The notes below the pieces were generated by a model. That model ran no database searches. It was not told the DNA's origin and saw nothing but the letters and a program-made list of their open reading frames with translations. From Methanobacteriota archaeon (GTDB taxonomy: Archaea > Thermoplasmatota > Poseidoniia > Poseidoniales > SP79), in NCBI GenBank assembly GCA_002715545.1, contig PAZI01000049.1, positions 14,984 through 58,892 on the forward strand: a stretch of DNA of 43,909 nucleotides, in the 5' to 3' direction. A program made the translations under genes and the position numbers. Below are positions 1 through 43,909 of this stretch, piece after piece. Within the stretch, counting starts at the first letter, position 1; each line of letters opens with the position of its first letter.

Positions 1-1
1 G

Positions 2-250
2 TCATTCGGTTCTGGCGCGTGATGACGATGGGCGTTTCGGGGGAGTTGGTTGTAGCTTTGTTACGACATGCCTGACGGAGGGCAGCGCGGACACTGATTT
101 TTTCTGTACGTTTAGCTTCAACGAAGAGAAGTGGTGTCCCAACCAGATCGGCAGTGCCGCCAGCAATAACAAAGCCGCCACCAGATAGAGGGGCGCGATG
201 GCAATCAATGCCCAGATTTTCCCGCAGGTATCCCGCAAGCTCGCGCTCAT
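2..250 (-). CDS. Small membrane protein, unknown function
   Basis: 82 residues from an ATG with a good Shine-Dalgarno (GGGAG six bases upstream on the minus strand). A strongly hydrophobic stretch at about residues 12-38, rich in Ala, Leu and Pro, is followed by a basic Ser/Pro/Lys/Arg-rich tail, so one or two membrane passes with a charged C-terminus are expected. It begins 11 bases after the preceding minus-strand gene. Its TGA overlaps an ATG at 3-5 that would open another gene leaving the window, so the operon continues to the left. I recognise no family; a membrane role is inferred from composition only. Confidence 0.6.
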   Translation of the reverse strand: MSASLRDTCGKIWALIAIAPLYLVAALLLLAALPIWLGHHFSSLKLNVQKKSVSALPSVRHVVTKLQPTPPKRPSSSRARTE

Positions 251-261
251 AGCCGTCTCCC

Positions 262-528
262 TTACGTTTTGATGCTGACATTTAGCCTACTCGCCCGACC
301 GGCCCCCAAGGCCGGGGAGGGCTGGGGGAAGCAGTCGATGGATTTAACGGGTGCGCCGTCGTACTGACTGCGAGCGTATTCTTTCAGTCTTTCGGTGTGG
401 TCGTAGATGTGTGCGTAACACTCATCTTTTGATTTGAAAGAAAGTGGCTCTCCGTTCAGATGCGTGATGGTTAAAGCGTCTTGAGAGCCGGGTGCGAGCA
501 GGAACATGAAGACGACGATCTGATACAT
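262..528 (-). CDS. Short exported or membrane-anchored protein, unknown
   Basis: 88 residues. I chose the ATG at 528 because it overlaps the TAA of the upstream gene as TAATG, the coupling style used throughout this genome; a GTG 12 bases upstream (540) is the alternative. Residues 1-12 are hydrophobic (MYQIVVFMFLLA), which could be a signal peptide or anchor. The rest is polar, with two cysteines (about 37 and 66) that could form a disulfide if the protein is exported. No family recognised. It sits between the HTH/zinc-ribbon gene and the 82-residue membrane protein. Confidence 0.6.
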   Translation of the reverse strand: MYQIVVFMFLLAPGSQDALTITHLNGEPLSFKSKDECYAHIYDHTERLKEYARSQYDGAPVKSIDCFPQPSPALGAGRASRLNVSIKT

Positions 529-836
529 TAGTATATCCACTGCTCGTCGAGACCGAAGATGTCTTCGTGGGATTTACATTTCACACATCGATACTGCCAT
601 TTGGGCCGTGGGGTTGTGTCACCGCAGCAGGTGCATGGGCGCTCCCACATTTGTATTTGTATTGTGGGGACGTATTTAGCGCCGTCGTAGTTGCCGATGC
701 CGTGACGGGCACAGATGCGCTTTGCGGTGTCGACGCAGCAGCCGAAGCGGTCGGCGACCTCACTGATGTGAAGCATGTCGAAGTTGGTCTGAAGCCAGTG
801 TATGTCGGCTTCGCTTATCTCAACGGGCCGTGGCAT
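528..836 (-). CDS. Helix-turn-helix protein with C-terminal zinc ribbon
   Basis: 102 residues. The N-terminal half (about 10-48) reads as a DNA-binding helix-turn-helix: an acidic first helix, then ISEVADRFGCCVDTAKRICA, which has the spacing of a recognition-helix pair. The C-terminal half has two Cys pairs (C68..C71 and C84..C87) typical of a zinc ribbon. A small DNA-binding protein, probably a regulator or homing-type accessory protein, is inferred. The Shine-Dalgarno is weak, and about 210 non-coding bases lie upstream (837-1045), so it may have its own promoter. Its stop overlaps the next start. Confidence 0.6.
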   Translation of the reverse strand: MPRPVEISEADIHWLQTNFDMLHISEVADRFGCCVDTAKRICARHGIGNYDGAKYVPTIQIQMWERPCTCCGDTTPRPKWQYRCVKCKSHEDIFGLDEQWIY

Positions 837-966
837 GTGTTATTTTTACCGATAAAGAGACAAAAACACAAGCCGCAAGGTGTATAAAAAGCCCTCTAAG
901 ATCAGGAAGTTGTATTTTGTGCTTGACAGGGGTGAATTTGGCAACAATGCTTCGCGCAGCGGAGCC

Positions 967-1054
967 GGTATATATAATAAATGAATTCAGTTTCTCCCCA
1001 CCGCCTTGTGGGCGGCGGGAGAAACGAACAGATACATGTTATATATTATATACC
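967..1054. other. Long imperfect palindrome with strong central hairpin
   Basis: A nine-base-pair outer stem (GTTTCTCCC / GGGAGAAAC) and a GC inner stem (CCGCC / GGCGG, loop TTGTG) form a hairpin at 990-1025. AT-rich arms extend the symmetry: GGTATATATAATAA at 967 against TTATATATTATATACC ending at 1054. The right arm enters the last codons of the 1046-1387 gene. There is no clean T-run after the stem on the minus strand, so a simple terminator is not the best reading. A replication origin or a structured mRNA end are alternatives. The rest of 837-966 shows only weak promoter-like words. Confidence 0.6.
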
Positions 1055-1387
1055 CGACAGCGCTCGGAACGCTCGGGTGCCCCTCTTGCGTAATTGATTT
1101 TTCGAAAGCTGCTTTCGCCGCCGTTTTTTCTTGTAATGAACAGTTCCGTTCGGCGGCAACACAGTTATGACCCTGTCGACCGCATGGTCAAAAATCAGTT
1201 TCCAGACGATGTCACGGTAGCGCACGAGGTACATACCTCGGGATTTGTTACGGCTTAAACAAACAGCCTTGTTATTTAACACCGCCTCTTTAAGGCCAAA
1301 AATGTCGAGCGTGGAAAAGTCGTCCACACCGTAGCGTTCGGATGCTCGCTGTACTGTGTGATAGTACGCACCTTTGTTTTTAGACAT
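1046..1387 (-). CDS. Small basic phage protein, unknown
   Basis: 113 residues. The ATG at 1387 overlaps the TAA of the primase-polymerase gene by eight bases, so it is co-transcribed and probably translationally coupled. The N-terminus (HTVQRASERYG) and middle (YLVRYRDIVWKLIFD, then VITVLPP) give an alpha plus beta pattern resembling small phage proteins that look like RelE/DUF4258-type folds; this is only a resemblance. A run of Lys/Arg near residues 86-102 makes the C-terminus strongly basic, suggesting nucleic-acid contact. Placement directly behind the replication enzyme suggests a replication or host-interaction accessory role (inference). Confidence 0.6.
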   Translation of the reverse strand: MSKNKGAYYHTVQRASERYGVDDFSTLDIFGLKEAVLNNKAVCLSRNKSRGMYLVRYRDIVWKLIFDHAVDRVITVLPPNGTVHYKKKRRRKQLSKNQLRKRGTRAFRALSGI

Positions 1388-3266
1388 TTATCCACTCCTC
1401 TATAGTGCGGACGCTGACCATCACGTCCGGGTGTTGGGCGATGTCGAATGCTGATGTCCCGCGAGCCGACAGGATGCGGACACGCTGCTTTAAGGAATTC
1501 TGAGAGACAAAGAACTGAGTGCCGTCTGTGCGCTCGCCTGTTCCGAAATGGATCGTCCGCATGTTTTCGTTGCGGTCGCGCGTCTTGTGGTAGGTGAGCC
1601 GGTAGGCATCTAGCAGACGGCTGCCGTTCGATAGCTCACCCGCCTTACGGGTGAGCTGTTGCGTCATCGTCTCACCAAGATTGTCGGGCTTATCGACGAG
1701 GCCGTTGAACTGGTCAGCGCGTTCGGCGTCCTCATAGATCGGCGTCAATCGCATCTGGAGGTCGAGGTTGGTGAGCTGGTTCGTGCTGCCAGCTTCACGG
1801 CCAAGGCCGTCTGCACCGCCTTTATTGGCGTGGTGGATCATGATTACAGCGCGGCCCGTGTTACGGATCGCCATGAGCAGCCGGTTGACCGGCGTCCATG
1901 CGTTTGCGTCGTTTTCTTCGAGACCCGCCCAAGCGGAGCGCAGTGTGTCAATGACGACAACCTCGGGGTTGTAAGATTGAATCCAATCTTGCAGCAGTTT
2001 GTTGCCGTCTGGCGTCCCCAAGGGCATGACGCCGCCTTCCTCTTGAGCGAGGACAGCCGGGGACCAGTGCCCGTACTCTTCGCCTGGATCGCCGTAACTG
2101 TCTTGGAGTAGACGGAAGCGCGAGGACACGCTTTCGAGGCCGAGTTCATAGTCGAGGTAGAGGACACGGGCCGGTCGCTCGATGTCGAAGCCGCCGATGG
2201 TGTTGCCCATCGACAGATGCCACATCACCGTCTGAATGAAGCGAGACTTACCTGCGCCCGAGTACGCGTATAGCTGAATGATGCTCCCACCTTTGAGCCA
2301 CGGATCGATGAGGTATTGTTGGTCACCCACCATCGTTTGAAGGCGGGGAATGTCCGACGTGAAGATCGGCCGCAGCGGCACCTTCGGCTTGGGGACACGC
2401 TCGACGTAGCGCTCCGGGTGGTTGCGCCGGTCTGCCTCTTCGGCAGATTTGCATTTGGCTTCAACGTATTCCGACTGATCGATGTCGGGGTTTGGCAGGA
2501 ACCATGTGTCCATGAACTCGTGTAACGCATCACGTAAGACGTACCCACGCACACCTGCGGCTACACATTCTCCGGCGTACCTTATTAGTAGATTGTCTCT
2601 ACCGCCGCCTTCACCCTGTCCGATTTTGCGACCGAGACGCTCAACGGTGAGAGCCGCTATGCTGGACGCTGTTTCTGCTCCGGCGGCAATGTTTGTGAGA
2701 TCGGGAAGCTCGTCTCCGACCGGCTTGTCAACGACCGTAGGCGACAGCGGGTAGCGCGGTGCGTCATCGTGCCAGTCGAGGCCGGGCTGGTTGTCCCAGC
2801 GATATTCGACGTATTGGCCTGTTTTGGATTTGCAGATCGACGGCGGGACGACGACGTAACCACCATCACCTCGAAGGTCGATGTCGTCGCAGCCCCACAG
2901 GCCTTGTTGATTGCGAACGTCCGAGCCGGGGTGGGTAAAGTAGTAATGCGGCCCGCGCCCAGATCGTGCCGAGAACGGGCTGGTGAGACCACGTTCCTTC
3001 GCAAACTCGATTGCGCTGTCGCTATCGCAGTCGATAACGACGACGTTGGATGTCGCGCCGGTCGCTAGACCGAGCGCGATCTCATCGTGCTGATCGAACC
3101 AGCCGACCACTTCTTCTTCAGAAGCGATGCGATCTTGGAATTCCCTCCATTTATTGAGGGGTCGCTTGTCGTGCGGGTTGAGCGGAATGACGGACCAGCC
3201 GTCTTCGATGTACTCAAGGGCAGCGTTTAATAGAACGTCTTTTTGGCTTTTTATCCTGTCTCTCAT
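1380..3266 (-). CDS. Primase-polymerase / RepA-type helicase fusion
   Basis: 628 residues with two recognisable modules. Residues 10-160 match the bifunctional primase-polymerase (PrimPol) family: the metal-binding DxD is D79-C-D81, followed by SGRGPHYYF (H107) and a DIDLRGDGGYVVVPP block around 128-142. Residues 320-500 match hexameric RepA-like AAA ATPases: Walker A AYSGAGKS (334-341), Walker B EVVVID (435-440), and the HH..K motif in MIHHANK (476-482). A C-terminal helix-turn-helix-like stretch ends the protein (about 600-628). The expected role is primer synthesis and unwinding at the origin. The start at 3266 has GGAGG six bases upstream, inside the end of the repressor gene, with which it overlaps by 53 bases. 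No DNA polymerase is present in the window. Confidence 0.9.
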   Translation of the reverse strand: MRDRIKSQKDVLLNAALEYIEDGWSVIPLNPHDKRPLNKWREFQDRIASEEEVVGWFDQHDEIALGLATGATSNVVVIDCDSDSAIEFAKERGLTSPFSARSGRGPHYYFTHPGSDVRNQQGLWGCDDIDLRGDGGYVVVPPSICKSKTGQYVEYRWDNQPGLDWHDDAPRYPLSPTVVDKPVGDELPDLTNIAAGAETASSIAALTVERLGRKIGQGEGGGRDNLLIRYAGECVAAGVRGYVLRDALHEFMDTWFLPNPDIDQSEYVEAKCKSAEEADRRNHPERYVERVPKPKVPLRPIFTSDIPRLQTMVGDQQYLIDPWLKGGSIIQLYAYSGAGKSRFIQTVMWHLSMGNTIGGFDIERPARVLYLDYELGLESVSSRFRLLQDSYGDPGEEYGHWSPAVLAQEEGGVMPLGTPDGNKLLQDWIQSYNPEVVVIDTLRSAWAGLEENDANAWTPVNRLLMAIRNTGRAVIMIHHANKGGADGLGREAGSTNQLTNLDLQMRLTPIYEDAERADQFNGLVDKPDNLGETMTQQLTRKAGELSNGSRLLDAYRLTYHKTRDRNENMRTIHFGTGERTDGTQFFVSQNSLKQRVRILSARGTSAFDIAQHPDVMVSVRTIEEWINV

Positions 3267-3453
3267 GTTCGTCCTCCATAAAGTCGTCGAGAACGATTTC
3301 CGGTCGTGCGCTCTTAATTCTGAGCAGGGTTTCGAGAGACAGGCTCATCGACCGGAGCCACCGATAAGGCGCTGTGCGCGGTAAACCCGCTGCTGCTGCG
3401 GCCTTTGACGCGCCACCGAGTTCCTTAACCAGCCTATCTACTCGAAAGATCAT
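3214..3453 (-). CDS. Cro-like transcriptional regulator
   Basis: 79 residues, the first gene of the leftward operon. Residues about 7-35 (LVKELGGASKAAAAAGLPRTAPYRWLRS) give the helix-turn-helix of the Cro/CI or YdaS-like antitoxin type. The C-terminus is highly charged (DDFMEDEHERQDKKPKRR), which looks like an unstructured tail. It lies next to a near-perfect dyad at 3511-3538 in the divergent spacer, the natural place for autoregulation and for control of the plus-strand recombination operon. Its 3' end overlaps the primase-polymerase start, so repressor and replication protein are co-expressed. Whether it maintains lysogeny is unknown; no integrase is visible. Confidence 0.7.
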   Translation of the reverse strand: MIFRVDRLVKELGGASKAAAAAGLPRTAPYRWLRSMSLSLETLLRIKSARPEIVLDDFMEDEHERQDKKPKRRSIKRCP

Positions 3454-3561
3454 TTTTCCACTTGCTTAGTTGTATGGAAATCGCTACAAGAGGGTGAAAT
3501 ATAAAACCTAGTGTATTTTATGCAACATAAAAATACACCTTATCAAAACTAAGAGGACGAG
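3454..3561. promoter_or_regulatory. Divergent promoter/operator region
   Basis: This AT-rich 108-bp spacer separates the leftward repressor-replication operon from the rightward recombination operon. It contains a dyad, GTGTATTTTATG then CATAAAAATACAC, at 3511-3538, whose arms differ by one inserted base, and a smaller one, TTGTA/TACAA, at 3470-3489. On the minus strand TTGCAT and TATATT are 16 bases apart and overlap the dyad, a plausible promoter for the repressor. No strong plus-strand promoter is evident by eye. The rightward gene has AGAGGA upstream of its ATG. Confidence 0.6.
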
Positions 3562-4359
3562 ATGGCTTGGAAGAGTAAGAGCACGAGCGACAGCACTGTC
3601 GACACACACAAGTGTCTGCTTGTCGGTCACCACGGCTGGGGAAAAACAACGCAAGCGCTGAACATGCAGAGGGCGTTTGGGCCGGGATTGATTATTTCCG
3701 GTGAGGGTGGGCTGCGGTCAGTGATGACTGAGGAGATCGACTATGTTGACTTCACGACATGGGACGGCGAGCACGATCCAGAATCTGGAACGTATTCATT
3801 CCGAGGTATCTGCCGGGACATGGCGTCTCCCGAGTTCTCGAAGGCTGGCTATAAGTGGCTGATGATCGACAGCCTCACCGAGCTGGCCGATCAGTTGATG
3901 TCGCACGTTTCCGAAGTCCATAAGGATAATAAGAACGGCTTTGAGAAGTGGGGCGATTACAGCCGCATGATGTTGGGTGCAGTGAAGTGGGTACGCGATC
4001 TGCCCTTTCATGTTGTCGTCACGGCCCTCGCTAAAGAGGAAGACGACGATAACGGCCAGACACACTATTGGCCAATGTTGCAGGGGCGCGGCGTGATGAA
4101 GCAGCTCCCCGGTATCTTCGATCATGTGTTTTGTGGGATACGCGTCACAGATGGTGACCGCGATAAGCCGCACGTCACCCGATACATCGTCACAGACGAG
4201 GTTCGAGGGTGGCACGGCAAGGCCCGTGATCCGCGACACCGCCTCAAGGCCGTCGAGCGGACGGGGGACATCACGGAACTCTTTCGTTCGATGAGCATGA
4301 GTGATGAAGAGTTCAAAAAGCGTTCGAAAATTCAACCAACGAGGACAGAAGATGAGTGA
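3562..4359 (+). CDS. Sak4-like RecA-fold ATPase (phage recombinase)
   Basis: 265 residues. P-loop VGHHGWGKTT (residues 21-30) and Walker B-like WLMIDSLTEL (99-108) identify a RecA/AAA_24-type ATPase of the class described in phages as Sak4, a single-strand annealing or recombination ATPase. The next gene encodes a DUF669 SSB-like protein and the one after it a Cas4/AddB-like nuclease; this ATPase-SSB-exonuclease set is the usual phage homologous-recombination context. The start has GAGGA upstream. The TGA overlaps the next ATG by eight bases (ATGAGTGA). A role in DNA repair, recombination-dependent replication or annealing is inferred from family and neighbours. Confidence 0.85.
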   Translation: MAWKSKSTSDSTVDTHKCLLVGHHGWGKTTQALNMQRAFGPGLIISGEGGLRSVMTEEIDYVDFTTWDGEHDPESGTYSFRGICRDMASPEFSKAGYKWLMIDSLTELADQLMSHVSEVHKDNKNGFEKWGDYSRMMLGAVKWVRDLPFHVVVTALAKEEDDDNGQTHYWPMLQGRGVMKQLPGIFDHVFCGIRVTDGDRDKPHVTRYIVTDEVRGWHGKARDPRHRLKAVERTGDITELFRSMSMSDEEFKKRSKIQPTRTEDE

Positions 4360-4828
4360 TTTCAGCAGTTTAGACCTGAGCGGGATTGACACCCAGGGCG
4401 ACGGAGCGCTGGCTCCGGGCAAGTACGAGGCGAGCATCAAGAGCGCTGCGATGCAGCCGACGAAGAACGGTAAAGGCAAGATGCTTGTCGTCGAATACGC
4501 CGTGCCGGGTGAGGGTGCGATCCGCGAGTGGATTACAATTTTCCATGAAAACGATCAGACCGCTCGCATCTCACAAGAGAGGTTAAAGACGATGCTCGTT
4601 CACGCGGGACATCCAAATCCCAACAAGCCGGGGGATGTCGCCACACTGAAGGGGCTAAAGGTCGGCATTAACGTCGTCGAAGGGGACAAGTGGACTGACG
4701 ATCAAGGTCAGCTCCGTGACGGCGGATCGAAAATTAAACGCAGCGGGGCTTACTTTTCCCTGTCCTCTGGTACGTCCGATGCTGCGGCTGAGGCAAAAAC
4801 AGAACTCGACGACGAAATTCCGTTTTAG
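4352..4828 (+). CDS. DUF669-family single-strand DNA-binding-like protein
   Basis: 158 residues from the ATG at 4352, which is preceded by GAGGACA and overlaps the upstream stop. An in-frame ATG-rich extension to 4301 lies inside the upstream gene and is less likely. The body is beta-rich (LAPGKYEASIKSA, KMLVVEYAVP, GLKVGINVVEG), as in DUF669 phage proteins. The protein ends in DDEIPF, the acidic tip used by bacterial SSB proteins to recruit partners. It should coat single-stranded DNA for the adjacent Sak4-like ATPase. A strong terminator-like hairpin follows 12 bases after the stop. Confidence 0.85.
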   Translation: MSDFSSLDLSGIDTQGDGALAPGKYEASIKSAAMQPTKNGKGKMLVVEYAVPGEGAIREWITIFHENDQTARISQERLKTMLVHAGHPNPNKPGDVATLKGLKVGINVVEGDKWTDDQGQLRDGGSKIKRSGAYFSLSSGTSDAAAEAKTELDDEIPF

Positions 4829-4840
4829 CCTTGGGGGAGG

Positions 4841-4876: not shown

Positions 4877-5677
4877 ATGAGCATCGAAGACAAGATTGAC
4901 GAAGCATACGAACGCGAAGGCCGCGATCAGAAGCGTAAGTACATTGGTGCGTCATCGGTCGGCGGCGATTGTCTTGCCGAACAGAGCTTTGCTTTTCGTG
5001 GTTTTCCCGAGACACCCCCATCGGCCAAGCTAAAACGCATTTTCAAGATGGGGCATGTCATCGAGGACATCGTTGTCGCTGATCTCAAGAAGGCTGAGAT
5101 CGATGTGTTCGAGGTTGATGGGCTGACAGGACGGCAATTTGAGTACCGCTCGCACGGCGATCATGTGCAGGCCCACGCAGATGGTCAGATGCAGTACGAC
5201 GGCGAGCTGCGGCTGCTGGAGATCAAAAGCATGAACGACCGCAAGTGGAAAGAGTGCAAAAAGAAAGGTGTGCGCTCGTCGCACCCGCGCTACCAAAGCC
5301 AGATGCAGATGATGATGGCGATGTCGGGCATTGGGAGCTGTGTGTTCGTCGCGTATAATAAGAATACAAGCGAGTATCTGAGCGAGATCGTCACCTACGA
5401 CGAGTTTGAGGCGTCCGCGATCCTCGACCGGATCGAGCGCGTGATGCGCGGGGACGCTCCGAAGATCACAAAAAATATAGACGATTGGCGCTGCCGTGGT
5501 TGCTTCCAGCGTGGGAGCTGCTGGCTGGGCGAGCGCCCGAAGGTTTCGACATGCCGTAGTTGTTTGAGCGGTACAGCCAAAGAGATGGGCGGACGGTACT
5601 GCAATCAGCATGAACAGGACGTAGAGGACGACTATGTCTGCGATGATTTCAACTTTTGGGAGCCGCGCGATGGGTAG
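4877..5677 (+). CDS. Cas4/AddB-like PD-(D/E)XK nuclease with Fe-S cysteines and zinc finger
   Basis: 266 residues. The nuclease core is visible as H100-A-D102, then E115-I-K117 (LEIKS), and a downstream YxxQ (Y139, Q142), the order of the RecB/Cas4 exonuclease family. One N-terminal cysteine (C32) and a C-terminal trio C206-x2-C209-x5-C215 have the Cas4/AddB iron-sulfur arrangement. Beyond it, C226-x2-C229 and C242-x2-H245 look like an additional zinc finger not usual in Cas4. It should resect DNA ends with the Sak4-like and SSB-like proteins encoded upstream. The ATG follows a terminator T-run directly and lacks an adjacent Shine-Dalgarno. The last 44 bases overlap the next gene. Confidence 0.85.
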   Translation: MSIEDKIDEAYEREGRDQKRKYIGASSVGGDCLAEQSFAFRGFPETPPSAKLKRIFKMGHVIEDIVVADLKKAEIDVFEVDGLTGRQFEYRSHGDHVQAHADGQMQYDGELRLLEIKSMNDRKWKECKKKGVRSSHPRYQSQMQMMMAMSGIGSCVFVAYNKNTSEYLSEIVTYDEFEASAILDRIERVMRGDAPKITKNIDDWRCRGCFQRGSCWLGERPKVSTCRSCLSGTAKEMGGRYCNQHEQDVEDDYVCDDFNFWEPRDG

Positions 5678-24670: not shown

Positions 24671-25867
24671 TTACGTCGTGGTCTGCCAATCCGTGATTTT
24701 GGAGTGAACCTTCTCCTGTAGCATTTCGAGACCACACTCGGAGAGGTACTCGTGATGCTTCGCATCATCACCCGGAGACTGACGATCCATCAGTAACTGA
24801 GTGTCGCGGTTCTGCATGTAGCGGTAACGGAGATACGGGAAGTCCAGAATGACCATCTGGTTCTCGTAGTCCGGTACTTGACGGAACTGCGGGTGCAGGT
24901 GGACGAGGAGATCACCGGCCATCGTCTGATAGCGGGTGAAGTTTACGCCGTAGGTGCCCTCGACCTGGGTCGGCGACCAGCGGTTCTTTCCGAACTTCTG
25001 GAGGTGACCCGCAACCTTCGCGCCCACGAATGCGATCTTCTCTTTCGAGCCGAACGCGAAGACGCTTTCGATCAGGAAGCGGTCGAAATCGTCTTCCGTG
25101 ATCTGGTTGGCCGTGGACTGGGAAGCGCCAGCCAAGACGTTGGACGAGATGTTGGGAACCAAGCCGCCCGTGTAACGGAGGGGCTGCGAGGTGGAACCCA
25201 GCGTGGATGTGTCCTCGTGCTTTACGCCGAAGAAGAACGCCCGCTCGATGTCGGACATATGCAACTTGAGCGCTTTGGTCGAGAACTCGTCCTCAGCGTC
25301 ACCCGTGCGACGGTAGGTGTTATCCAACGTGCCCGTGACTTTGTACGATGTACGGAAGATTTGGGTGAAGTTGGACGCCACCGACGGATCGAACGAGATC
25401 GGGTTGGGGACGCTGTCACCTTCTTTTGAAGCGTGACCGGCAATGAACAGCTTGTCATTGTCGTTGATGGTGAGGCTGGTGCCGCTGATGTTACGAGTAA
25501 CGGTCAGGATGTTGGCACCCGCGCTTGCGCCGTTGGCGGAAGCACGCATTACCTCGCCGGTACGCTCGACGACGATGATCGTGCCGGGTACGACGAAGTT
25601 CAGATCGCCACCAGCGTCGACCGTCAAGGCGGTAACGTTGGCTGCTGCACCAGAACCCATGTTGATCTGCATCGTGCGGGACGGCAGCTCATCACGGAAG
25701 TTGGAGAACTTAGGGTCATCCGTTGCCTCGGACTGGCTCATGGCGAGCAATGCGTTCAGAGGCGCGGAGCCGTTTGGTTCTAGGAGCGTGAAAAGCTCCC
25801 GATAGTTTGTCGGACGGAAGTCTGTATTAAATTCGCCCGACCCACGAAGACCGATGATACCGGCCAT
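24671..25867 (-). CDS. Major capsid protein, SU10/DUF5309 type
   Basis: 398 residues. DFRPTNYRELFTLLEPNGSAPLNALL, the segment FSNFRDELPSRTMQINMG, the beta domain with VVPGTIIVVERTGEVMRA, and C-terminal VILDFPYLRYRYMQNRDTQLLMDRQSPGDDAKHHEYLSECGLE fit the DUF5309/SU10 major capsid family, which has the HK97 fold. It should form the icosahedral shell. The start has AAGGAG upstream. It follows the scaffold gene after two tiny genes, and a terminator-like hairpin follows it. The 139-base gap on its 5' side (25868-26006) contains this ribosome-binding site but no promoter I can support. Confidence 0.88.
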   Translation of the reverse strand: MAGIIGLRGSGEFNTDFRPTNYRELFTLLEPNGSAPLNALLAMSQSEATDDPKFSNFRDELPSRTMQINMGSGAAANVTALTVDAGGDLNFVVPGTIIVVERTGEVMRASANGASAGANILTVTRNISGTSLTINDNDKLFIAGHASKEGDSVPNPISFDPSVASNFTQIFRTSYKVTGTLDNTYRRTGDAEDEFSTKALKLHMSDIERAFFFGVKHEDTSTLGSTSQPLRYTGGLVPNISSNVLAGASQSTANQITEDDFDRFLIESVFAFGSKEKIAFVGAKVAGHLQKFGKNRWSPTQVEGTYGVNFTRYQTMAGDLLVHLHPQFRQVPDYENQMVILDFPYLRYRYMQNRDTQLLMDRQSPGDDAKHHEYLSECGLEMLQEKVHSKITDWQTTT

Positions 25868-35214: not shown

Positions 35215-36882
35215 CTACAGACCCCAGCCCTTCCATGCCCGCTTGTTTGCTGACGCCATGTCAGAAAGGGAGGTGCCGAACATGTGGACTTCCTTGTTGA
35301 GGCTGTTGGAAAGGTTGAGCGGACTGTTGAATGCGTTGCCGGTCGAAGGGACACGGCTGAGGACATCGAGGACAATGGAGAGGGCGTCGACTTGGTCGTC
35401 GTGTGCGCCGTCTGGAAACTCGACGCATTCCTGTAGGAAGTCATCCAGCCAGGGCGCGTCTTTGGGGAGGAAGACACGGCCACCCTCTATGAGATCGGTG
35501 ACAGCGTTGACGCGTGCGACCTTGTCGTTGACGACCTTGCGAGGGATGACGGCGATGCCGCTCTCGTTGCGGAGTTCTTGGATTAGGGATTGACCGGAGG
35601 CTTTGTCCTCGATGTGGACACCTCTGAGGCCGTTGCCGCGCCAGCGTGCGTTTAGTGCGATTAGGGCACGCTTGAGTTCGGGGAAGTCGTACTTGGCCCG
35701 CATGATGTCGAGGAGATGGATGTCCCCGTTATAGGAGAGGCCTGCGGTGATCGCGACGGAGTAGTCGGCGGTCTCTGTTTTTTTGAAGGCTGTGTCCGCG
35801 CCGATGATGATTGTTTCGAACTCGCCGGGGGGATCGTCGTGCTTCCACCATGTGGATTTGATGAGGTTGCCGCCCTTGATGTAGGGGGACTGCTGGTACA
35901 GGGACGCGAACTCGCGCTCATTGAGTTCGCGCTTTCTTATTAGTTCTTCTAATGGGAAACGATCCGGCCAGAGAGGTACTTCTTTCTTTTCCCACATGTA
36001 GCGTTTGGCCGGTGCGGTGTCCGTTAGACGTTTGTGGGCGTATTCGGGATTGCGAACTTGGACGCCTGTTTCTTCTTCTTGGATGGCCGGGAAGTTGATG
36101 TGTGTCCATTCGCCGTCGGCCCATTCCTTGAGGGTTTGGACGCGGCCAGCGAGGTCGTCAGGGTGCCACCGTGTCAGGGTGATGACGCGGATCGGTGGCG
36201 TGCCGTCGTAGGCCGGTTCGAGGCGGGTTGAGAGAGCGGACGCGTAGTAGTCCCATGTTTTGTTGCGCTGGGTGGCGCTCTCGGCGTCCTCGCGTGCTTT
36301 GATTGGATCGTCGATGTTGAGGAGGTTTGCGGCTCGACCGGAGGTCGTGCCGCCTATACCGACGCCGTAGTAGCGGCCGCCGCTTTCGGTTGCCCAGTTG
36401 TCGGCGGCCCGCGTTTCGTCGGAGAGGCGACAGTTGGGGAAGACCTGATGGAATTCGTTTGAGCGGACTACGTCGCGAACCTTGCGGCCGAAGTCTGTGG
36501 CCAGTTCGGCGTTGTATGAGCAGGACATGACGATGCGGCGGGGATCGCGGCCCATGAAGTAGGCTGGGAAGTAGATGCTGCCGAACGTGGACTTTGCGTG
36601 CCGTGGAGGCATCGTGATGAGGACATTGCGTATTGGCGGCCTGTCCCCGCGTTGCGGGCGCTTTTCTTTACGAGCGTGGCCGTAGCGGCGCTTTTCTAGC
36701 GCTTCCCAGAACTCGGGAAACAGCTCGCCCTGTTCAAGGAGGTGCAGGCACTCGATGAGCTTGAGCTGGAACTGGGGTATGTCCCAGCCGGGCTGCATGA
36801 ACTTGATGAAATGTTCGAAGCTGTCCTCGGCACGCTTGGCCGCGAGGAGTAGCTTGGCGGCTTCTTTTCTTGTCAGCGACAT
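35215..36882 (-). CDS. terL: Terminase large subunit
   Basis: 555 residues from the ATG at 36882; a TTG at 36924 would add an unlikely leader. The ATPase P-loop variant PPRHAKST lies at 92-99, Walker B-like LLNIDD at 187-192 and TRWHPDDLAG at 237-246. The RNase H-like nuclease has GADTAF (D363), HIEDKASG (E425/D426) and AHDDQVDAL (D495/D496). This is the packaging motor that cuts concatemers and drives DNA into the prohead. The small subunit lies upstream after a 281-base spacer (36883-37163) that holds AGGACGACC, AT-rich inverted repeats and a GC tandem repeat. Confidence 0.92.
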   Translation of the reverse strand: MSLTRKEAAKLLLAAKRAEDSFEHFIKFMQPGWDIPQFQLKLIECLHLLEQGELFPEFWEALEKRRYGHARKEKRPQRGDRPPIRNVLITMPPRHAKSTFGSIYFPAYFMGRDPRRIVMSCSYNAELATDFGRKVRDVVRSNEFHQVFPNCRLSDETRAADNWATESGGRYYGVGIGGTTSGRAANLLNIDDPIKAREDAESATQRNKTWDYYASALSTRLEPAYDGTPPIRVITLTRWHPDDLAGRVQTLKEWADGEWTHINFPAIQEEETGVQVRNPEYAHKRLTDTAPAKRYMWEKKEVPLWPDRFPLEELIRKRELNEREFASLYQQSPYIKGGNLIKSTWWKHDDPPGEFETIIIGADTAFKKTETADYSVAITAGLSYNGDIHLLDIMRAKYDFPELKRALIALNARWRGNGLRGVHIEDKASGQSLIQELRNESGIAVIPRKVVNDKVARVNAVTDLIEGGRVFLPKDAPWLDDFLQECVEFPDGAHDDQVDALSIVLDVLSRVPSTGNAFNSPLNLSNSLNKEVHMFGTSLSDMASANKRAWKGWGL

Positions 36883-37072
36883 GTGTATCCAAAAGGGGGG
36901 CGCGTAGCGTGTACGCACCCCCAAGTAGAGAGACGAGACAAGTAAAGCCTATGCACCGTCTAGGCGCTGGTCGTCCTTAACGGGTTGAAAATTTGCTCAG
37001 AATTTTCGGATACCCGGAAATGGCATTTAAAATTTTTGGTTTTCGGGATCGGCCCTCGCCCCCCCACATCAT

Positions 37073-39394: not shown

Positions 39395-39404
39395 GCACTC
39401 GTTA

Positions 39405-40305: not shown

Positions 40306-40457
40306 AGAAGCCCGTCAACTTCAACTACCGCCCCGCAAGCAGCTTGCGCGGGGCGGTCAAGGGCGCGTGGAACCGGGGCAGCAAGCCTCGCATCGAGGCC
40401 TCACCGCCTCCCCCATTACGGGGACGCATCATTAAACCAAAGGTTAAAGGTGAATAG
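40302..40457 (+). CDS. Small basic Pro-rich protein, tentative
   Basis: 51 residues starting MKKPVNFNYRPASSLRGAVK and ending in a Pro/Lys-rich tail. Its last 11 codons are read through the 33-base repeat element at 40422-40454, so the 3' part may be regulatory DNA rather than selected coding sequence. ATGA overlap with the upstream gene supports translation. Confidence 0.45.
   Translation: MKKPVNFNYRPASSLRGAVKGAWNRGSKPRIEASPPPPLRGRIIKPKVKGE
40422..40454 (+). repeat. 33-base intergenic-type repeat, copy A
   Basis: It begins GGACGCATCATTAA and continues with ACCAAAGGTTAAAGGTGAA. It matches 43329-43361 at about 30 of 33 positions, and its first 14 bases recur exactly at 39344-39357. It lies just before the methyltransferase gene. 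Probably a promoter or regulator site for gene groups of the right arm. Confidence 0.65.
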
Positions 40458-40459
40458 AG

Positions 40460-40954
40460 ATGAGGAGTCCAAACGACTTCTATCCAACACCGCACTCCAT
40501 CATCTGGACAGTTATCCGAATGTTGGGCTGGCGTAGCCCGGAGTTCTGGGAGCCGTGTGCGGGTGATGGAAGATTTGCTGATGCCTTGGACAACGCGCAT
40601 GGCGTGAGGTGCCTGCGCCACGACATCGAAACAGGCGAGGACTTCTTCGATTGGAAGTACGCACAAGCGCCTGACATCGTAACCAACCCGCCGTTCAAAA
40701 TGATACGGCAGTTCATAGACCATGCGTTCGCCATCGGAGTGCAGCGCATGGCACTCGTTTGCCCGGAGCGTTTGTGGGCTTGCCAGAAAGGCTTCGAGCA
40801 AAAACAGCGGCACAATCCTAGCCGCTTCATCAACCTCGCATGGCGCGAGGATTACCTGGGCAAAGGCGGTTCACCCGACCGAGCGTTAGCGATCTCGATC
40901 TGGGATGAGCCGAACGCGCCCTCAACCACTTACCAAGTATGCAGGAGACCATGA
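40460..40954 (+). CDS. DNA adenine methyltransferase-like protein
   Basis: 164 residues. N-terminal DFYPTP, motif I-like WEPCAGDG (30-37) for AdoMet binding and motif IV TNPPFK (75-80) for catalysis give the N6-adenine (or N4-cytosine) amino-methyltransferase signature. A compact protein without a visible target-recognition domain, like other short phage Dam-type enzymes. It may protect phage DNA from host restriction or mark it. Repeat copy A immediately precedes it. The TGA overlaps the following ATG (ATGA). Confidence 0.8.
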   Translation: MRSPNDFYPTPHSIIWTVIRMLGWRSPEFWEPCAGDGRFADALDNAHGVRCLRHDIETGEDFFDWKYAQAPDIVTNPPFKMIRQFIDHAFAIGVQRMALVCPERLWACQKGFEQKQRHNPSRFINLAWREDYLGKGGSPDRALAISIWDEPNAPSTTYQVCRRP

Positions 40955-41040
40955 TGTGGGAAATCTTAGGGCTGATACTGCTCGCAAACGGTGCGCTATG
41001 GGTCGGAATCGTAGTGATCGACAAGATCGCCGGTCTCTAG
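40951..41040 (+). CDS. 29-residue membrane peptide
   Basis: It begins MMWEILGLILLANGALWVGI and continues as one hydrophobic segment ending DKIAGL. AGGAGA upstream and an ATGA overlap with the methyltransferase stop support translation. Function unknown. Confidence 0.5.
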   Translation: MMWEILGLILLANGALWVGIVVIDKIAGL

Positions 41041-41147
41041 TGGCGCACGCGCTAGAGCAACCGGAGCACCGCCCACAGGTGGTGCGTAGCCGCAAGCGGT
41101 ACGACCGCAAGCGGGACAAGCAACAACAACGAAAGGACAGCGAATGA
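41040..41147 (+). CDS. 35-residue basic peptide
   Basis: The GTG at 41040 overlaps the preceding TAG as TAGTG. It runs through a very basic stretch (RSRKRYDRKRDKQQQRKDSE) and ends at a GGACAGCGAATGA junction like the following genes. An in-frame longer reading lies within the methyltransferase and is unlikely. Nucleic-acid binding is plausible from charge alone. Confidence 0.45.
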   Translation: MAHALEQPEHRPQVVRSRKRYDRKRDKQQQRKDSE

Positions 41148-41524
41148 GCGAATGCCCAAGCGCCGCATGGGAGCGGCACTACGCAGAAGAGGAAGCCAAG
41201 GCAGAGGGCGAAGCTGCACTCGACGAGTGCAAGGCCGTCCTCTGTTCTCTGTACGAAATCGACCCGGCCACAGAATGGAATGCGGTAAGGTTTCGGGTCG
41301 GGTTAGCGGTCTTCAAATACACCAATTGCGGTGCGTGGGTAAACTTCAGGGATGCGCCCAACATTACGCTGGGTTCAACCGTCGAGGGGTCTGATGTCGA
41401 TTGCACACCGATCACTCTGTCGTGGCCGTTTGTCAAACAAGATTGGTGGAACGCACTCAGCGAGATCGAGGGCGAAGCCGACTTTATCTGGCATGAATGG
41501 AATGAAGAGGAGGACAGCGAATGA
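41144..41524 (+). CDS. Acidic hypothetical protein ending EDSE
   Basis: 126 residues. Glu/Ala-rich N-terminal helix, then a Trp/Phe-rich core (WNAVRFRVGLAVFKYTNCG, LSWPFVKQDWW) and an acidic end (HEWNEEEDSE). No family recognised. Its last codons form the GGAGGACAGCGAATGA junction with the next gene. Small, acidic and compact, a profile shared with several host-takeover and anti-defence proteins, but this is not evidence of such a role. Confidence 0.6.
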   Translation: MSECPSAAWERHYAEEEAKAEGEAALDECKAVLCSLYEIDPATEWNAVRFRVGLAVFKYTNCGAWVNFRDAPNITLGSTVEGSDVDCTPITLSWPFVKQDWWNALSEIEGEADFIWHEWNEEEDSE

Positions 41525-41853
41525 GTAGCACCAAGAAAATCACGTTCCTCTACCAAGAGGACGGCGAGAACAAGATCAATCTGATCCAGAATCTCGCGCA
41601 CGTCTGGCAGGAGAGAGCAGACAAAGGACCACTCTACGATGAGGAATTGGAGTGGGCGAGATGTCTCGTTCAAAGACGAGAGCATTTCACGGGCGACATG
41701 CTGTTCAACAGGCCGAGCCTAGTCGGTGCGATCACCGTGATGAGCACGAACGACGACATCGTGTGGCTGGAGGACGCCGGTCCTCACCCGAAGACCACCG
41801 TGTTGGAGCGGGACGAGGTGATTAGCCGTTCATACGAGAGGGCCAGCGAATGA
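41521..41853 (+). CDS. Hypothetical protein
   Basis: 110 residues. ITFLYQEDGENKINLIQNLAHVW, then LEWARCLVQRREHF and IVWLEDAGPHPKTTVLERDEVI, mixed alpha/beta. No family recognised. The start follows GGAGGACAGCGA; the stop forms GGCCAGCGAATGA, a variant of the same junction. Confidence 0.6.
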   Translation: MSSTKKITFLYQEDGENKINLIQNLAHVWQERADKGPLYDEELEWARCLVQRREHFTGDMLFNRPSLVGAITVMSTNDDIVWLEDAGPHPKTTVLERDEVISRSYERASE

Positions 41854-42041
41854 GGTACGCAACCGTATGGGCATTATTCTCAATCGGCCACGTCATTAGC
41901 CGCGTGATGCGTCAGGGTCGGGGCTACGCCGACTGGCTGTATCCCGCATATAACCGGGTCATGATCTTGTCTAGCGACATCCAAGGTGATGGTCGTGGAC
42001 CGTGGGGAGACATCGTGACCGCAGAGGAGGACAGCGAATGA
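41850..42041 (+). CDS. Small hypothetical protein, possible short membrane segment
   Basis: 63 residues. N-terminal moderately hydrophobic (YATVWALFSIGHVISRVM), then YADWLYPAYNRVMILSSD and an acidic tail (TAEEDSE). The start has GAGGG upstream in the preceding gene; the end carries the standard GGAGGACAGCGAATGA junction. Confidence 0.55.
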   Translation: MRYATVWALFSIGHVISRVMRQGRGYADWLYPAYNRVMILSSDIQGDGRGPWGDIVTAEEDSE

Positions 42042-42544
42042 CACCACGCATGAAAGCAATCCAGCGATTGCAAAACATCGTCGATGGGCGGTGGGAACGC
42101 CACTGGGAAAACGAGCTGGCCCCGTGGGCCGATACCGACCCTGTCACCACGATGGCTCTCGCGGACGAACATTTTGAGAAGTACGCAGAAGAATGCATGG
42201 GCCGCCACTCATATAGCTGGGCGTGCCGCATGGATCAGGTGGAAAGAAAATCCATCGAGTACGCACTCAACGTGCTCAAGGCGGAACGTCGCAGGTTTGA
42301 AAACGCCGCAGAAAAAGTCGGCGATGTGCTGCACGACATGCCGTTCAGTGACGTGCTTCAGTTGGCCGAAGCCCTCGGGTGGAGGGAACCAGACCTACCC
42401 GGCGCATGGGATGCCACGACAGCCGACGCATTCGAAGAGGAGGCTATCGACTTCATCCTACGGGCCGTAGTGCGACATGCTGAAGCAGCGATAGCAGTCG
42501 AGCAGCGAGCAGAAATGACAACCGAACAGGAGGACAGCGAATGA
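42038..42544 (+). CDS. Helical hypothetical protein
   Basis: 168 residues from the ATG in the standard junction; a longer in-frame reading from 42002 is inside the upstream gene. Helices rich in Glu/Ala/Arg/Trp (IQRLQNIVDGRWERHWEN, QVERKSIEYALNVLKAERRRFE, EEAIDFILRAVVRHAEAAIA). Ends EQEDSE. No family recognised. Confidence 0.6.
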   Translation: MTPRMKAIQRLQNIVDGRWERHWENELAPWADTDPVTTMALADEHFEKYAEECMGRHSYSWACRMDQVERKSIEYALNVLKAERRRFENAAEKVGDVLHDMPFSDVLQLAEALGWREPDLPGAWDATTADAFEEEAIDFILRAVVRHAEAAIAVEQRAEMTTEQEDSE

Positions 42545-42732
42545 CAACCAAACAAGACATCCAAGACCTGGGTGTAGAGATCAGTCAGCGTCTCCGCTGG
42601 GACGGCGAAGCAATCGTCGAGACGTTCCGAGCGGCGCTCGAAGACGCCAACCTTCACACCTTCAACGCCGCCGTGGGTGCGGTGTGGGAGCTGCAACGCA
42701 AACTTTACGACACACTGGAGGACAACGAATGA
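42541..42732 (+). CDS. Small acidic hypothetical protein
   Basis: 63 residues. A single helical domain (IQDLGVEISQRLRWDGEAI, then FRAALEDANLHTFNAAVGAV) with an acidic C-terminus (TLEDNE). Standard junction before it, a GGAGGACAACGAATGA variant after it. No family recognised. Confidence 0.6.
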   Translation: MTTKQDIQDLGVEISQRLRWDGEAIVETFRAALEDANLHTFNAAVGAVWELQRKLYDTLEDNE

Positions 42733-42911
42733 GTGCATCGTTTGAAGAAGACAAGGTGTTCACCTACCTCGACGAGCTTCGGGATAGCGGCGTCACCAAC
42801 ATGTTCGGCGCTGGCCCGTATCTCGAACAGGAGTTCGGGGTTTCGAGGCGAGTATCACACGTTCTGCTCGAAACATGGATGCGTTCGAAGCGAGAGGGGA
42901 CCAGCGAATGA
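42729..42911 (+). CDS. Small winged-helix-like protein
   Basis: 60 residues from the ATGA overlap. VFTYLDELRDSGVTNMFGAG, then LEQEFGVSRRVSHVLLETWM resembles a compact helix-turn-helix, with FGVSRRVSHVLLETW as candidate recognition region. A small DNA-binding regulator is inferred. The end has a GGGGACCAGCGAATGA variant junction. Confidence 0.6.
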   Translation: MSASFEEDKVFTYLDELRDSGVTNMFGAGPYLEQEFGVSRRVSHVLLETWMRSKREGTSE

Positions 42912-43147
42912 GTTCCAGCCACAGCTTCACAGTCTGCATCGCCGTGAGAGTTTACGACGTCGAGGAGCTTGCCGATCACCTTGTGAAGAACAGCAGCATG
43001 TACTGCGGGACAGGTCACAGACAAGCGAGGGAAATGATTACCGATCCCAACAATGGCGAAATCGATTTTGAAACCTGCTGCCGCCTCATCCTTGACCGGG
43101 GCTGCATCATACCGGGTATGACCACAGAGGAGACATACATCCAATGA
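42908..43147 (+). CDS. Hypothetical protein with several cysteines
   Basis: 79 residues. A beta start (HSFTVCIAVRVYDVEELADHL) then a helix, with cysteines in MYCGTG, ETCCRL and RGCIIPG. No zinc motif with clear spacing. ATGA overlaps on both sides. No family recognised. Confidence 0.6.
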   Translation: MSSSHSFTVCIAVRVYDVEELADHLVKNSSMYCGTGHRQAREMITDPNNGEIDFETCCRLILDRGCIIPGMTTEETYIQ

Positions 43148-43302
43148 CCAACTTCCAACAACTCATCGAACACTTCGACCGGCAGGAGCTGCTCGAAGCC
43201 AAGCGCATGATGCAACGCAACACAGAGGAGGCCATCGAGGTGGCAGCTTCGATCCACCGAAAGCACGGTGATGACGTGCTGACGTGGAAAGAAGCCGCCT
43301 AG
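43144..43302 (+). CDS. Small helical protein, last of the coupled series
   Basis: 52 residues, helical throughout (FQQLIEHFDRQELLEAKRMM then NTEEAIEVAASIHRKHGDD). ATGA overlap with the preceding stop. It is followed by a GTCCGG/CCGGAC hairpin (43315-43333) and repeat copy B, so it ends the ATGA-linked block. Confidence 0.6.
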   Translation: MTNFQQLIEHFDRQELLEAKRMMQRNTEEAIEVAASIHRKHGDDVLTWKEAA

Positions 43303-43328
43303 TAACGTGATGCGTCCGGGTGATGACC

Positions 43329-43361
43329 GGACACGTCATTAAACCAAAGGTTCAAGGTGAA
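43329..43361 (+). repeat. 33-base repeat, copy B
   Basis: It matches copy A (40422-40454) at about 30 of 33 positions, starting GGACACGTCATTAA. The reverse complement of GGACGCATCA lies just upstream at 43308-43317, making an inverted pair around GTCCGG/CCGGAC. Downstream CCAAA...GTTC...GAAC...TTTGG forms a second small dyad. It precedes the next gene start at 43400. Confidence 0.65.
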
Positions 43362-43399
43362 CTTTTGGACTGCCAATTTTCACCAACGAGGTTTTGAGA

Positions 43400-43909
43400 A
43401 TGAAAACTGACTTTCCAACAATGAGACTATTGGCCGAAGCCGTCAAACTTAGCGGCGGCACGCAGCGTGACATGCTGCGGAAGATCGTGGGCCGGATGAC
43501 TGCCTCAGCCGACCCCGACGAGTATGATGAGTTCAACAGGAAAATCAAAGGGGCCATCCTGCACAGCCCGATCTGCGGTGACGGGGACGATCAGATCAAC
43601 CCCAAGCCGACCGCAATCGGTATCCTCAAGAGCATGAGCAACGACACGCTCATGGCCCTCGCTCGTGGGGACAGGATGCTAGAGTATGTTCCGGCCGCCA
43701 TTGAAAACCCAGTTGACGCCAGCGTTACAGACGACTCCACGACAACAGGCTTTCGCTTCGGATGGCCAAAAGGGAGCGATAAACTCGATCCCGGCGGGGA
43801 CGTGAAAGATTACATGGGGTGGGCGACCGATCAGATATGGGCGGACGAAGAGGGCGATTTCCAATACCACAATCGCCTCGGCACATTCGACAGCGTTGAG
43901 CATGTGAGC
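43400..43909 (+). CDS. Partial gene, open at window end
   Basis: 170 residues visible and in frame to the last base, with no stop. It starts MKTDFPTMRLLAEAVKLSGG with GAGG upstream and follows repeat copy B. A helical N-terminus (RDMLRKIVGRMT) is followed by a Gly/Asp-rich part (GWPKGSDKLDPGGDVKDYMG) and acidic, aromatic residues (IWADEEGDFQYHNR). No family recognised. Codon use is like the other right-arm genes. The 3' end is missing. Confidence 0.6.
   Translation, partial: MKTDFPTMRLLAEAVKLSGGTQRDMLRKIVGRMTASADPDEYDEFNRKIKGAILHSPICGDGDDQINPKPTAIGILKSMSNDTLMALARGDRMLEYVPAAIENPVDASVTDDSTTTGFRFGWPKGSDKLDPGGDVKDYMGWATDQIWADEEGDFQYHNRLGTFDSVEHVS

What the first reader, a model, noticed from the sequence alone, without database searches (positions are those of the whole stretch)
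1..43909. GRGGACA heptamer enriched about eightfold across the window
Reading both strands by eye I find about 90 copies of GRGGACA or its complement TGTCCYC. Four heptamer words over 43.9 kb predict about 11 in random sequence. Copies are spread over the whole window and often cluster: three within 15896-15923, and two each within 21111-21127, 35359-35374 and 6260-6281. Orientation is mixed; in the leftward late operon roughly 28 are antisense and 38 sense, so codon or amino-acid preference does not explain it. A related core (GAGGACG, GCGGACA) also seems common, and GAGGAC doubles as the ribosome site of several plus-strand genes, but that cannot explain antisense copies. Possible roles: recombination hotspot (Chi-like), packaging or segregation polarity signal, protein-coating site, or a modification motif. 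The biology is untested.
Basis: partly seen in the sequence, partly recalled or inferred. Interest (0 to 1): 0.72.

Follow-up and report, generated by a model that had tools for sequence, protein, structure and literature searches.

The report
Phage genome studded with private word
This bacterial virus, like many of its relatives, has written its own short DNA word all over its genome on both strands; the word changes from lineage to lineage, is not shared by the one host genome that could be checked, and may be the start signal of the virus's own DNA-copying enzyme.

Summary
GRGGACA occurs 91 times (47+, 44-). Its two words are the commonest heptamers of the window; Markov orders 0-3 expect 9-15 copies, and shuffles that keep every protein and codon usage expect 17-22. 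One-base neighbours are mostly near background. The window belongs to the CRP-810-type temperate podophages. Close relatives keep the word. More distant ones lack it, but most carry their own dense word on both strands: CAGACG, CAAGACG, AAGTCG, GTAGAC, GTGGAC, GMGCGTG and others (29 of 41 records, window included, score 9.4 or more after codon correction). In a Poseidonocella prophage the word's density falls about eightfold at the prophage border. So the word is the phage's, and it drifts between lineages. Best explanation (0.45): it is the priming or recognition site of the phage's primase-polymerase/RepA-type helicase. Of 20 other phages, 8 of 9 with the PrimPol domain score above 9 and 0 of 11 without it. 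Against it: no strand polarity or regular spacing, PrimPol phages without a word, related controls, and a co-evolution test that did not single out PrimPol. The reader protein is unproven. Closest known kind: Chi-like genome-wide words.

The parts
1..43909 (.). 91 copies of GRGGACA. + starts: 2049, 2122, 2160, 2391, 4264, 4341, 4682, 5063, 5705, 5838, 6260, 6537, 7688, 7823, 9768, 10887, 11540, 12536, 13961, 14309, 15833, 15896, 15917, 21111, 21121, 22110, 22870, 23095, 26942, 27022, 27355, 27747, 30130, 33294, 33391, 33609, 34872, 35359, 35368, 36619, 38466, 39057, 41510, 42027, 42530, 42718, 43667. - (TGTCCYC) starts: 4761, 5776, 6275, 7367, 7461, 7836, 8102, 10169, 10936, 11794, 11965, 13021, 14814, 14953, 15208, 15904, 15998, 16204, 19486, 19640, 19953, 20708, 22053, 22477, 23007, 23184, 25210, 26095, 26374, 26502, 26898, 27114, 27980, 30970, 32211, 32238, 32414, 33329, 33593, 34253, 35604, 35721, 36642, 36822
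1380..3266 (-). candidate reader: primase-polymerase (PF09250, residues 16-170) with a four-helix bundle (200-282), RepA-type helicase (AAA_25, 316-484) and a small C-terminal helical tail (592-625)
   Evidence: model pLDDT 81.4, pTM 0.51; best PDB match RSF1010 RepA 1nlf; ORF904 3m1m by E-value 1.1e-8, but low TM-score; D79, D81, H107, D130 invariant in the 18-row and 28-row alignments; that these are the AEP catalytic residues is recalled
3562..4359 (+). Sak4-like recombinase ATPase (AAA_24, phrog_124), rival reader module
4301..4828 (+). DUF669 / ssDNA-binding-like protein, rival reader module
4877..5677 (+). Cas4-type exonuclease, rival reader module
   Evidence: phrog_1990, 8e-56
24671..25867 (-). 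SU10-type major capsid protein used to find the family
35215..36924 (-). terminase large subunit used to find close relatives L001 (96%), L002 (87%)

Best explanation
GRGGACA is this phage lineage's private recognition word. Shown: it is enriched genome-wide on both strands, at about 1 copy per kb per strand, beyond what proteins and codons explain, and most related phages carry other words at similar density. A reader that needs a 6-7-base word would find it too rarely in random sequence (roughly one per 4-16 kb per strand), so the genome is selected to carry it about every kilobase per strand. When the enzyme's specificity drifts, the genome is rewritten over time, which gives the lineage-specific words.
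For: Enrichment and sharpness. Word kept in close relatives: L001 26 in 9.4 kb (2.4 expected at order 2), L002 14 in 5.7 kb (1.9), L203 26 in 11.4 kb. Sites: L002-window 11 shared, 3 and 6 not (71% against 37% for permuted words, at 81% identity). Lineage-specific words, codon-corrected z of 9.4 or more: 15 of the first 24 records, 11 of 12 further large ones, 3 of 5 short ones most of which were chosen after one search had shown words in them. One-base difference between sister lineages: GTAGAC (G045, G051) versus GTGGAC (G054, G055), PrimPol 77-80% identical. In 24 of the 29 strong records the best word has a GAC/GTC core. Element-bound: Poseidonocella prophage 261 GMGCGTG in 60 kb, next 232 kb of the contig 123. 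PrimPol link outside the family: PF09250 is in 9 of 20 named phages searched whole; maximum z BFK20 21, phi673 18, phi674 15, EmiRose 11.5, Gustav 10.6, Morgushi 10.6, P1201 9.9, NBR1 9.2, MW202627 5.9. The 11 without it stay at or below 8.6. Idiomarinaceae 1N2-2, annotated with Cas4 exonuclease, annealing protein and AAA ATPase, has AAA_25 with a TOPRIM primase: 6.2. SIO1 (annotated Cas4-domain exonuclease, TOPRIM primase): 6.1. Phages of C. glutamicum carry different words (phi673/phi674 GCCGGG; P1201 GCGGAAC), so one host species does not dictate one word. Sequence-specific priming by such enzymes is published: ORF904 GTG, NrSPol TTTGGTTA and GTG, helix bundle binds the site (PMC8718748, passages); RSF1010 RepB' at two ssi sites (PMC4538821, passages).
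Against: No polarity switch in the sum of 27 genomes, although forks from a fixed origin would need sites mainly on the lagging template; single genomes are lopsided (excess G030 37:108, G035 107:53, G001p 115:64), unexplained. Spacing is random or clumped, not regular (mean p for lower-than-uniform CV 0.63 over 28 strand sets from 14 genomes). PrimPol carriers without a strong word: G016, G019, G023, G004, G015 and MW202627 (5.9). Motif similarity follows every protein's phylogeny; PrimPol's partial correlation is not significant (0.085, p 0.30), and a structural tail protein scores best (0.39, p 0.002) (26 records). HTVC027P has another AEP primase (AEP-TOTE) and no word (5.0), so an AEP alone is not enough. 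NrSPol's 8-mer is, per PMC8718748, much rarer than GTG in its genome; the passages read report no enrichment. The PF09250 phages outside the family are nearly all actinophages, several related to each other; the GC-rich ones (Gustav, NBR1, Morgushi) show several unrelated words near z 9-10, and pieces of host DNA reach 9.2, so those count little. No Corynebacterium host genome was tested. No in vitro evidence.
Confidence: 0.45

Rival explanations
1. Phage-encoded Chi-like signal: the word stops or redirects the phage's own Cas4-type exonuclease/Sak4 recombinase, protecting phage DNA and seeding recombination or concatemer formation.
For: Sak4, DUF669 and Cas4 genes are found in 21 of 24 records, the same ones that have PrimPol; sites in both orientations, random spacing and no shared polarity suit ends entering from either side.
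Against: 1N2-2, annotated with the same kind of module, and SIO1 (annotated Cas4-domain exonuclease) have no strong word; about 2 words/kb is tenfold the 0.2 Chi/kb given for lambdoid phages (PMC3784561, passages); I know of no phage-encoded Chi reader (recalled, not searched for).
Confidence: 0.17
2. Other phage DNA-binding factor (nucleoid-like coat, segregation or maintenance protein, or the C-terminal tail of the PrimPol) that binds the word on double-stranded DNA.
For: Near-equal use of both strands fits a double-strand reader; PrimPol has a small C-terminal helical domain whose segment gave the highest correlation in the first test (0.50, partial 0.27).
Against: That partial correlation falls to 0.12 (p 0.17) with more background proteins. 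Not all conserved gene clusters were annotated, so other candidates remain open; the cluster of CRP-810's LuxR-type regulator is in 9 of 24 records.
Confidence: 0.13
3. Host-read signal (host Chi of an AddAB or RecBCD-type enzyme, or a host restriction/methylation word).
For: Lambdoid phages without recombinases over-represent host Chi, median O/E 3.12 (PMC3784561, passages); Chi was not detected in most Proteobacteria (PMC8022716, passages). In the Poseidonocella host GAGCGTG alone is mildly high (67 vs 36 at order 2).
Against: Prophage word falls eightfold at the prophage border, and GMGCGTG together is not enriched in 275 kb of another contig of that host (139 seen, 150 expected at order 2); 58 genomes of that class have at most about 0.27 GRGGACA/kb; sister phages differ in word. 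The window's own host is unknown.
Confidence: 0.07
4. Target of a phage DNA-modifying enzyme, enriched because modified copies protect the phage.
For: A methyltransferase-like piece lies at 40460-40954 (phrog_799); CRP-810 gp19 is annotated as a SAM-dependent methyltransferase.
Against: A signature scan of 24 records found candidates in only 3, unclustered (it would miss unusual enzymes and did not flag CRP-810 gp19); high density is not needed for protection.
Confidence: 0.06
5. Mutational or gene-conversion drive (a context-specific repair, nicking or copying bias) that piles up the word without function.
For: Sites turn over between relatives.
Against: Sites are more conserved than permuted words in all three pairs compared; the seven-base sharpness with a two-fold R position is unlike a simple mutation bias; density is similar for different words.
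Confidence: 0.07

Closest known systems
Chi sites (GCTGGTGG) and their over-representation in lambdoid phages
   Same: short asymmetric word, over-represented in phages
   Different: Chi is the host's word, about 0.2/kb with median O/E 2.4-3.1 in the phage groups quoted (PMC3784561, passages); here about 2/kb with O/E 6-10, different in each phage lineage, and not enriched in the tested host
PrimPol primase recognition sites (ORF904 GTG; NrSPol TTTGGTTA and GTG) and RSF1010 RepB' ssi sites
   Same: PF09250 domain as in ORF904's clade and a RepA-type helicase; sequence-specific initiation
   Different: published sites are a trinucleotide or few sites; genome-wide enrichment of a 6-7-base word is not reported in the passages read
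T7 primase sites 5'-(G/T)2GTC-3' (PMC12839067, passages)
   Same: GTC core, as in most strong words of this family
   Different: T7 gp4 is a TOPRIM-type primase (recalled); T7's strongest words in my count do not contain GTC or GAC
CRP-810-type phage family (Wu et al. 2024, PMC11288001)
   Same: the window's family by capsid, terminase, portal, PrimPol, AAA_24 and nuclease
   Different: the passages read do not describe any over-represented word

Membership tests
CRP-810-type phages | six core genes named in the paper: portal, terminase, capsid, PD-(D/E)XK nuclease, AAA ATPase, PrimPol | tested here: met
   core genes from passages of PMC11288001
CRP-810-type phages | integrase (217 of 251 in the paper, so not in every member) | tested here: not met
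   no integrase found in the window, which may be an incomplete genome (43.9 kb; CRP-810 57.7 kb)
Chi site of the host | word over-represented in the host genome | tested here: not met
   Poseidonocella prophage and its host; 58 genomes of that class; not testable for the window's own, unknown host
Chi site of the host | recognised by RecBCD/AddAB | not testable with these tools
   needs biochemistry
polar segregation word (KOPS-like, recalled) | strand bias switching along the replicon | tested here: not met
   sum of 27 genomes; single genomes lopsided
PrimPol primase site | phage encodes a PrimPol with conserved acidic residues | tested here: met
   D79, D81, H107, D130 invariant; PF09250 1.5e-28; fold matches RepA and, weakly, ORF904
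PrimPol primase site | phages with a strong word have PrimPol | tested here: met
   29 of 29 strong records have it by profile search (truncated in G018); 14 of these 29 were themselves found through PrimPol, so only the other 15 are a fair test; 0 of 11 named phages without PF09250 reach z 9
PrimPol primase site | PrimPol phages have a strong word | tested here: not met
   G016, G019, G023, G004, G015, MW202627
PrimPol primase site | motif co-varies with PrimPol more than with other proteins | tested here: inconclusive
   a structural protein scored best
PrimPol primase site | primer synthesis starts at the word | not testable with these tools
   needs purified enzyme

The most novel reading that the evidence does not exclude
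A private priming code: phages with a PrimPol-RepA type replicase evolve a 6-7-base start word and spread it through their whole genome, so that the replisome primes on phage DNA about every kilobase and only rarely on host or rival DNA; the word drifts base by base between lineages, and genome statistics alone can reveal the specificity of each enzyme.
Probability: 0.35. Interest if true: 0.87.

Novelty: new variant of a known kind. Interest (0 to 1): 0.74.

Why it matters
It shows strong, genome-wide enrichment of a short word that belongs to a virus, not to the tested host, with a different word in each lineage. If PrimPol reads it, the recognition site of an uncultured phage's primase can be predicted from sequence and tested directly, and phage replication would tell self from host DNA by primer-site density. 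If a recombination enzyme reads it, it would be a phage-owned Chi system. Either way, counting words by lineage is a cheap test for hidden recognition systems in viruses.

Tried and rejected
Host polar word: the list looked all-plus after 75 kb, but on fetched sequence showed that this was list truncation; rejected. Ribosome-site and codon explanations: rejected. Methylation: no shared enzyme in a signature scan. Co-evolution tests follow phylogeny only. Strand polarity and regular spacing: none shared. Shorter words in weak members: nothing clear. Guessed accessions of sister roseophages failed. NrS-1 was not looked for by accession and was not tested. P1201 was first meant as a control without PrimPol; one search showed PF09250 with another helicase. 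The protein tested for Kuura was a nuclease, not its primase; one search then searched all 20 named records whole.

Only part of some named records was scored: 39-40 kb of phi673, phi674, Gustav, NBR1, Morgushi and P1201, 50 kb of HTVC027P. controls are 25 loci with SIO1-type primase plus 2 with Kuura-type capsid. In one search palindromes are counted twice; later calls correct this. Scores vary slightly with the random shuffles (G010 10.6, 9.5). Novelty searches; by title and abstract start none of the listed papers reports such words in these phages; passages were read in six papers. Subscription papers are not covered.
Full report
What is there. The window holds 91 GRGGACA words, 47 on + and 44 on -. 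GAGGACA (52) and GGGGACA (39) are the two commonest heptamers. Markov orders 0-3 expect 13.1, 10.1, 9.3 and 15.4 for the pair; orders 4 and 5 expect 39.9 and 72.6 because their counts already contain most of the word. One-base neighbours are mostly near background, except GCGGACA and GRGGACG; the clearest flank signal is C just before the word (47 of 91). In 45 ORFs the word is counted 51 times in sense and 35 in antisense; shuffling synonymous codons gives 12.4 and 4.2; a shuffle that also keeps codon-junction context gives 21.9 against 85. The enrichment is real and is not made by proteins, codons or ribosome sites.

What the window is. Terminase, SU10-type portal and capsid, Cas4-type exonuclease, Sak4-like ATPase and a PrimPol-AAA_25 protein place it with the CRP-810-type podophages: nearest named relative Roseobacter phage CRP-810 (terminase 54%, capsid 60%, PrimPol 35%). 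The family paper (PMC11288001; passages by term search) describes a temperate, globally distributed marine family; 'overrepresented' does not occur in its main text.

The word is lineage-specific. Close relatives keep it: L001 26 copies in 9.4 kb, L002 14 in 5.7 kb, L203 26 in 11.4 kb. Where window and L002 align at 81% identity, 11 sites are shared and 3 and 6 are not (71% conserved, permuted words 37%); with L001 at 90.6% identity 16 are shared, 9 and 3 not (73% against 60%); L002 with L001 10 shared, 4 and 11 not (57% against 43%). Of 56 fetched loci of 9 kb or more, L001 has 10.8 times the order-2 expectation and no other exceeds 3.2 (L040, six copies). Many of the others stand out for their own words.

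A codon-corrected score (synonymous shuffles, all 6- and 7-mers, both strands together) was then used. Of the first 24 whole or large records, the window included, the others found by capsid, 15 reach z 10: window GRGGACA, CRP-810 CAGACG, the Poseidonocella prophage GMGCGTG, and others with CCAGACG, AACGCCA, TAGACG, AAGCCA, YCAGACG, RAGACGA, CAAGAC, GTACGMA. Nine do not: G003, G004, G005, G014, G015, G016, G017, G019, G023. Of 12 further large records found by PrimPol 11 reach 9.4, and 3 of 5 short ones chosen because words had been seen (AAGTCG, AGACGTT, CAAGACG, AAGTCT, GTAGAC, AGACAG, GTGGAC, ACGACA among them). Together 29 of 41; in 24 of the 29 the best word has a GAC/GTC core. On 12-kb pieces, 48 PrimPol loci have median maximum 6.95 against 5.81 for 27 control loci (p 1.3e-4), and the top 7-mer contains GAC/GTC in 38 of 48 against 3 of 27. 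Sister lineages differ by one base: GTAGAC in G045 and G051, GTGGAC in G054 and G055, with PrimPol 77-80% identical; GTGGACA is also one base from the window's word. Best-word densities per strand are mostly 0.5-2 per kb in the strong records, the window 1.04.

The word belongs to the phage. In Poseidonocella contig C233 the first 60 kb, which hold the prophage, have 261 GMGCGTG; the following 232 kb have 123. In 275 kb of another contig of that genome there are 139 against 150 expected at order 2 (GAGCGTG 67 vs 36, GCGCGTG 72 vs 114). Across 58 genomes of that class GRGGACA never exceeds about 0.27/kb; the window has 2.07/kb. The window's own host is unknown, so a host reader is made unlikely, not excluded.

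Who reads it? PrimPol, Sak4, DUF669 and Cas4 are in 21 of 24 records, with strong and weak words alike; the three without them are fragments of 30-34 kb. Presence therefore gives no answer inside the family. A signature scan found no shared methyltransferase. Mantel tests show that word similarity follows phylogeny; PrimPol is not singled out and a structural protein scores best. Outside the family the picture is sharper but small. Corynephage BFK20 was picked because its gp43 is a known PrimPol (PMC4538821, passages). It has GCCGGGG 73 times in ORFs against 9.2 expected (z 21) and 78 times in all, 40 on + and 38 on -; neighbours are mostly near background except at the loose last position. 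phi673 and phi674 share GCCGGG (z 18 and 14.7) and also have GCTGCAG; EmiRose reaches 11.5; Gustav, Morgushi and NBR1 reach 9.2-10.6, but with several unrelated words. P1201, on the same host species as phi673, has PF09250 with a different helicase and another word (GCGGAAC, 9.9). MW202627 has PF09250 with PriCT and a DnaB-type helicase and no word (5.9). A whole-record search finds PF09250 in these nine and in none of eleven others: lambda, T7, HTVC027P, Kuura, PaP2, SIO1, mu1/6, Mel-JY34, VS-ABTNL-3, 1N2-2 and CRP-823, whose maxima are 8.6, 8.2, 5.0, 8.6, 8.2, 6.1, 6.3, 5.2, 6.3, 6.2 and 8.3. Six 60-kb pieces of Poseidonocella DNA reach 7.2-9.2, so scores just above 9 deserve little weight; the firm cases are BFK20, phi673 and phi674, which are related to one another. 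Four of the eleven (Kuura, PaP2, Mel-JY34, VS-ABTNL-3) have a capsid related to this family's and an annotated DNA polymerase; 1N2-2 has an annotated Cas4/annealing/AAA module and the AAA_25 helicase with a TOPRIM primase. In these examples capsid and recombination module without PrimPol do not bring a word.

Structure. The window PrimPol model (28 sequences, mean pLDDT 81.4, pTM 0.51) shows an N-terminal mixed domain where PF09250 matches, a four-helix bundle at 200-282, a RecA-type helicase domain and a small C-terminal helical domain. The best PDB match is RSF1010 RepA (TM 0.71 of target); ORF904 is fifth by E-value but with low TM-score (0.36 of target) and rmsd 18.5. In ORF904 the helix bundle binds the priming site (PMC8718748, passages).

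Mechanism and its weak points. I take a PrimPol priming word as most likely (0.45). Shown: enrichment beyond coding constraint, lineage specificity, absence of enrichment in the tested host, association with PF09250 in a small set. Inferred: that PrimPol itself reads it, on single strands, and that primers start there. Against: summed over 27 genomes both strands carry a similar excess in most bins, while single genomes are lopsided without a known reason; spacing is not regular; several PrimPol phages have no word. A phage-owned Chi-like signal is the main rival (0.17). Recombination-started forks in both directions would reconcile priming with the lack of polarity; that is inference.

Noticed in passing
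window 1-4400 and 39600-43909: Both end stretches carry the word only on + (6:0 and 5:0), while the middle is mixed; not seen as a trend in the 27-genome sum.
   Followed up: partly
window 7559-17206 (-): A 3215-residue ORF, with relatives in 22 of 24 records, window included, no PHROG hit and no Pfam hit above its cut-off.
   Followed up: no
window 5634-6527 (+): Nucleoside 2-deoxyribosyltransferase-like and dATP/dGTP diphosphohydrolase-like genes side by side; BFK20 also has an annotated deoxyribosyltransferase next to its PrimPol, and CRP-823 a diphosphohydrolase near its primase. Possible nucleotide-pool or base-modification link.
   Followed up: no
window 40460-40954 (+): Short ORF matching only part of a DNA methyltransferase family (phrog_799 positions 209-371 of 458).
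   Followed up: partly
CRP-810 (L003, L004): The palindrome CGTACG is also enriched (about 72 vs 22 in ORFs; one search counts palindromes twice); G006 and G033 have GTACG-based words. Unexplained second word class.
   Followed up: no
L422, L423 (phi673, phi674): GCTGCAG is enriched (94 vs 18.7 and 75 vs 15.4) beside GCCGGG.
   Followed up: no
window, whole: Further weaker words are over-represented: GGATCG, AGATCG, ACCGGC.
   Followed up: no
G016, G019, G023, G004, G015: Family members with PrimPol but no strong word; a natural contrast for finding the specificity residues.
   Followed up: partly
G030, G035, Poseidonocella prophage: Whole-genome strand imbalance of the word excess (37:108, 107:53, 115:64), unlike most relatives.
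   Followed up: no
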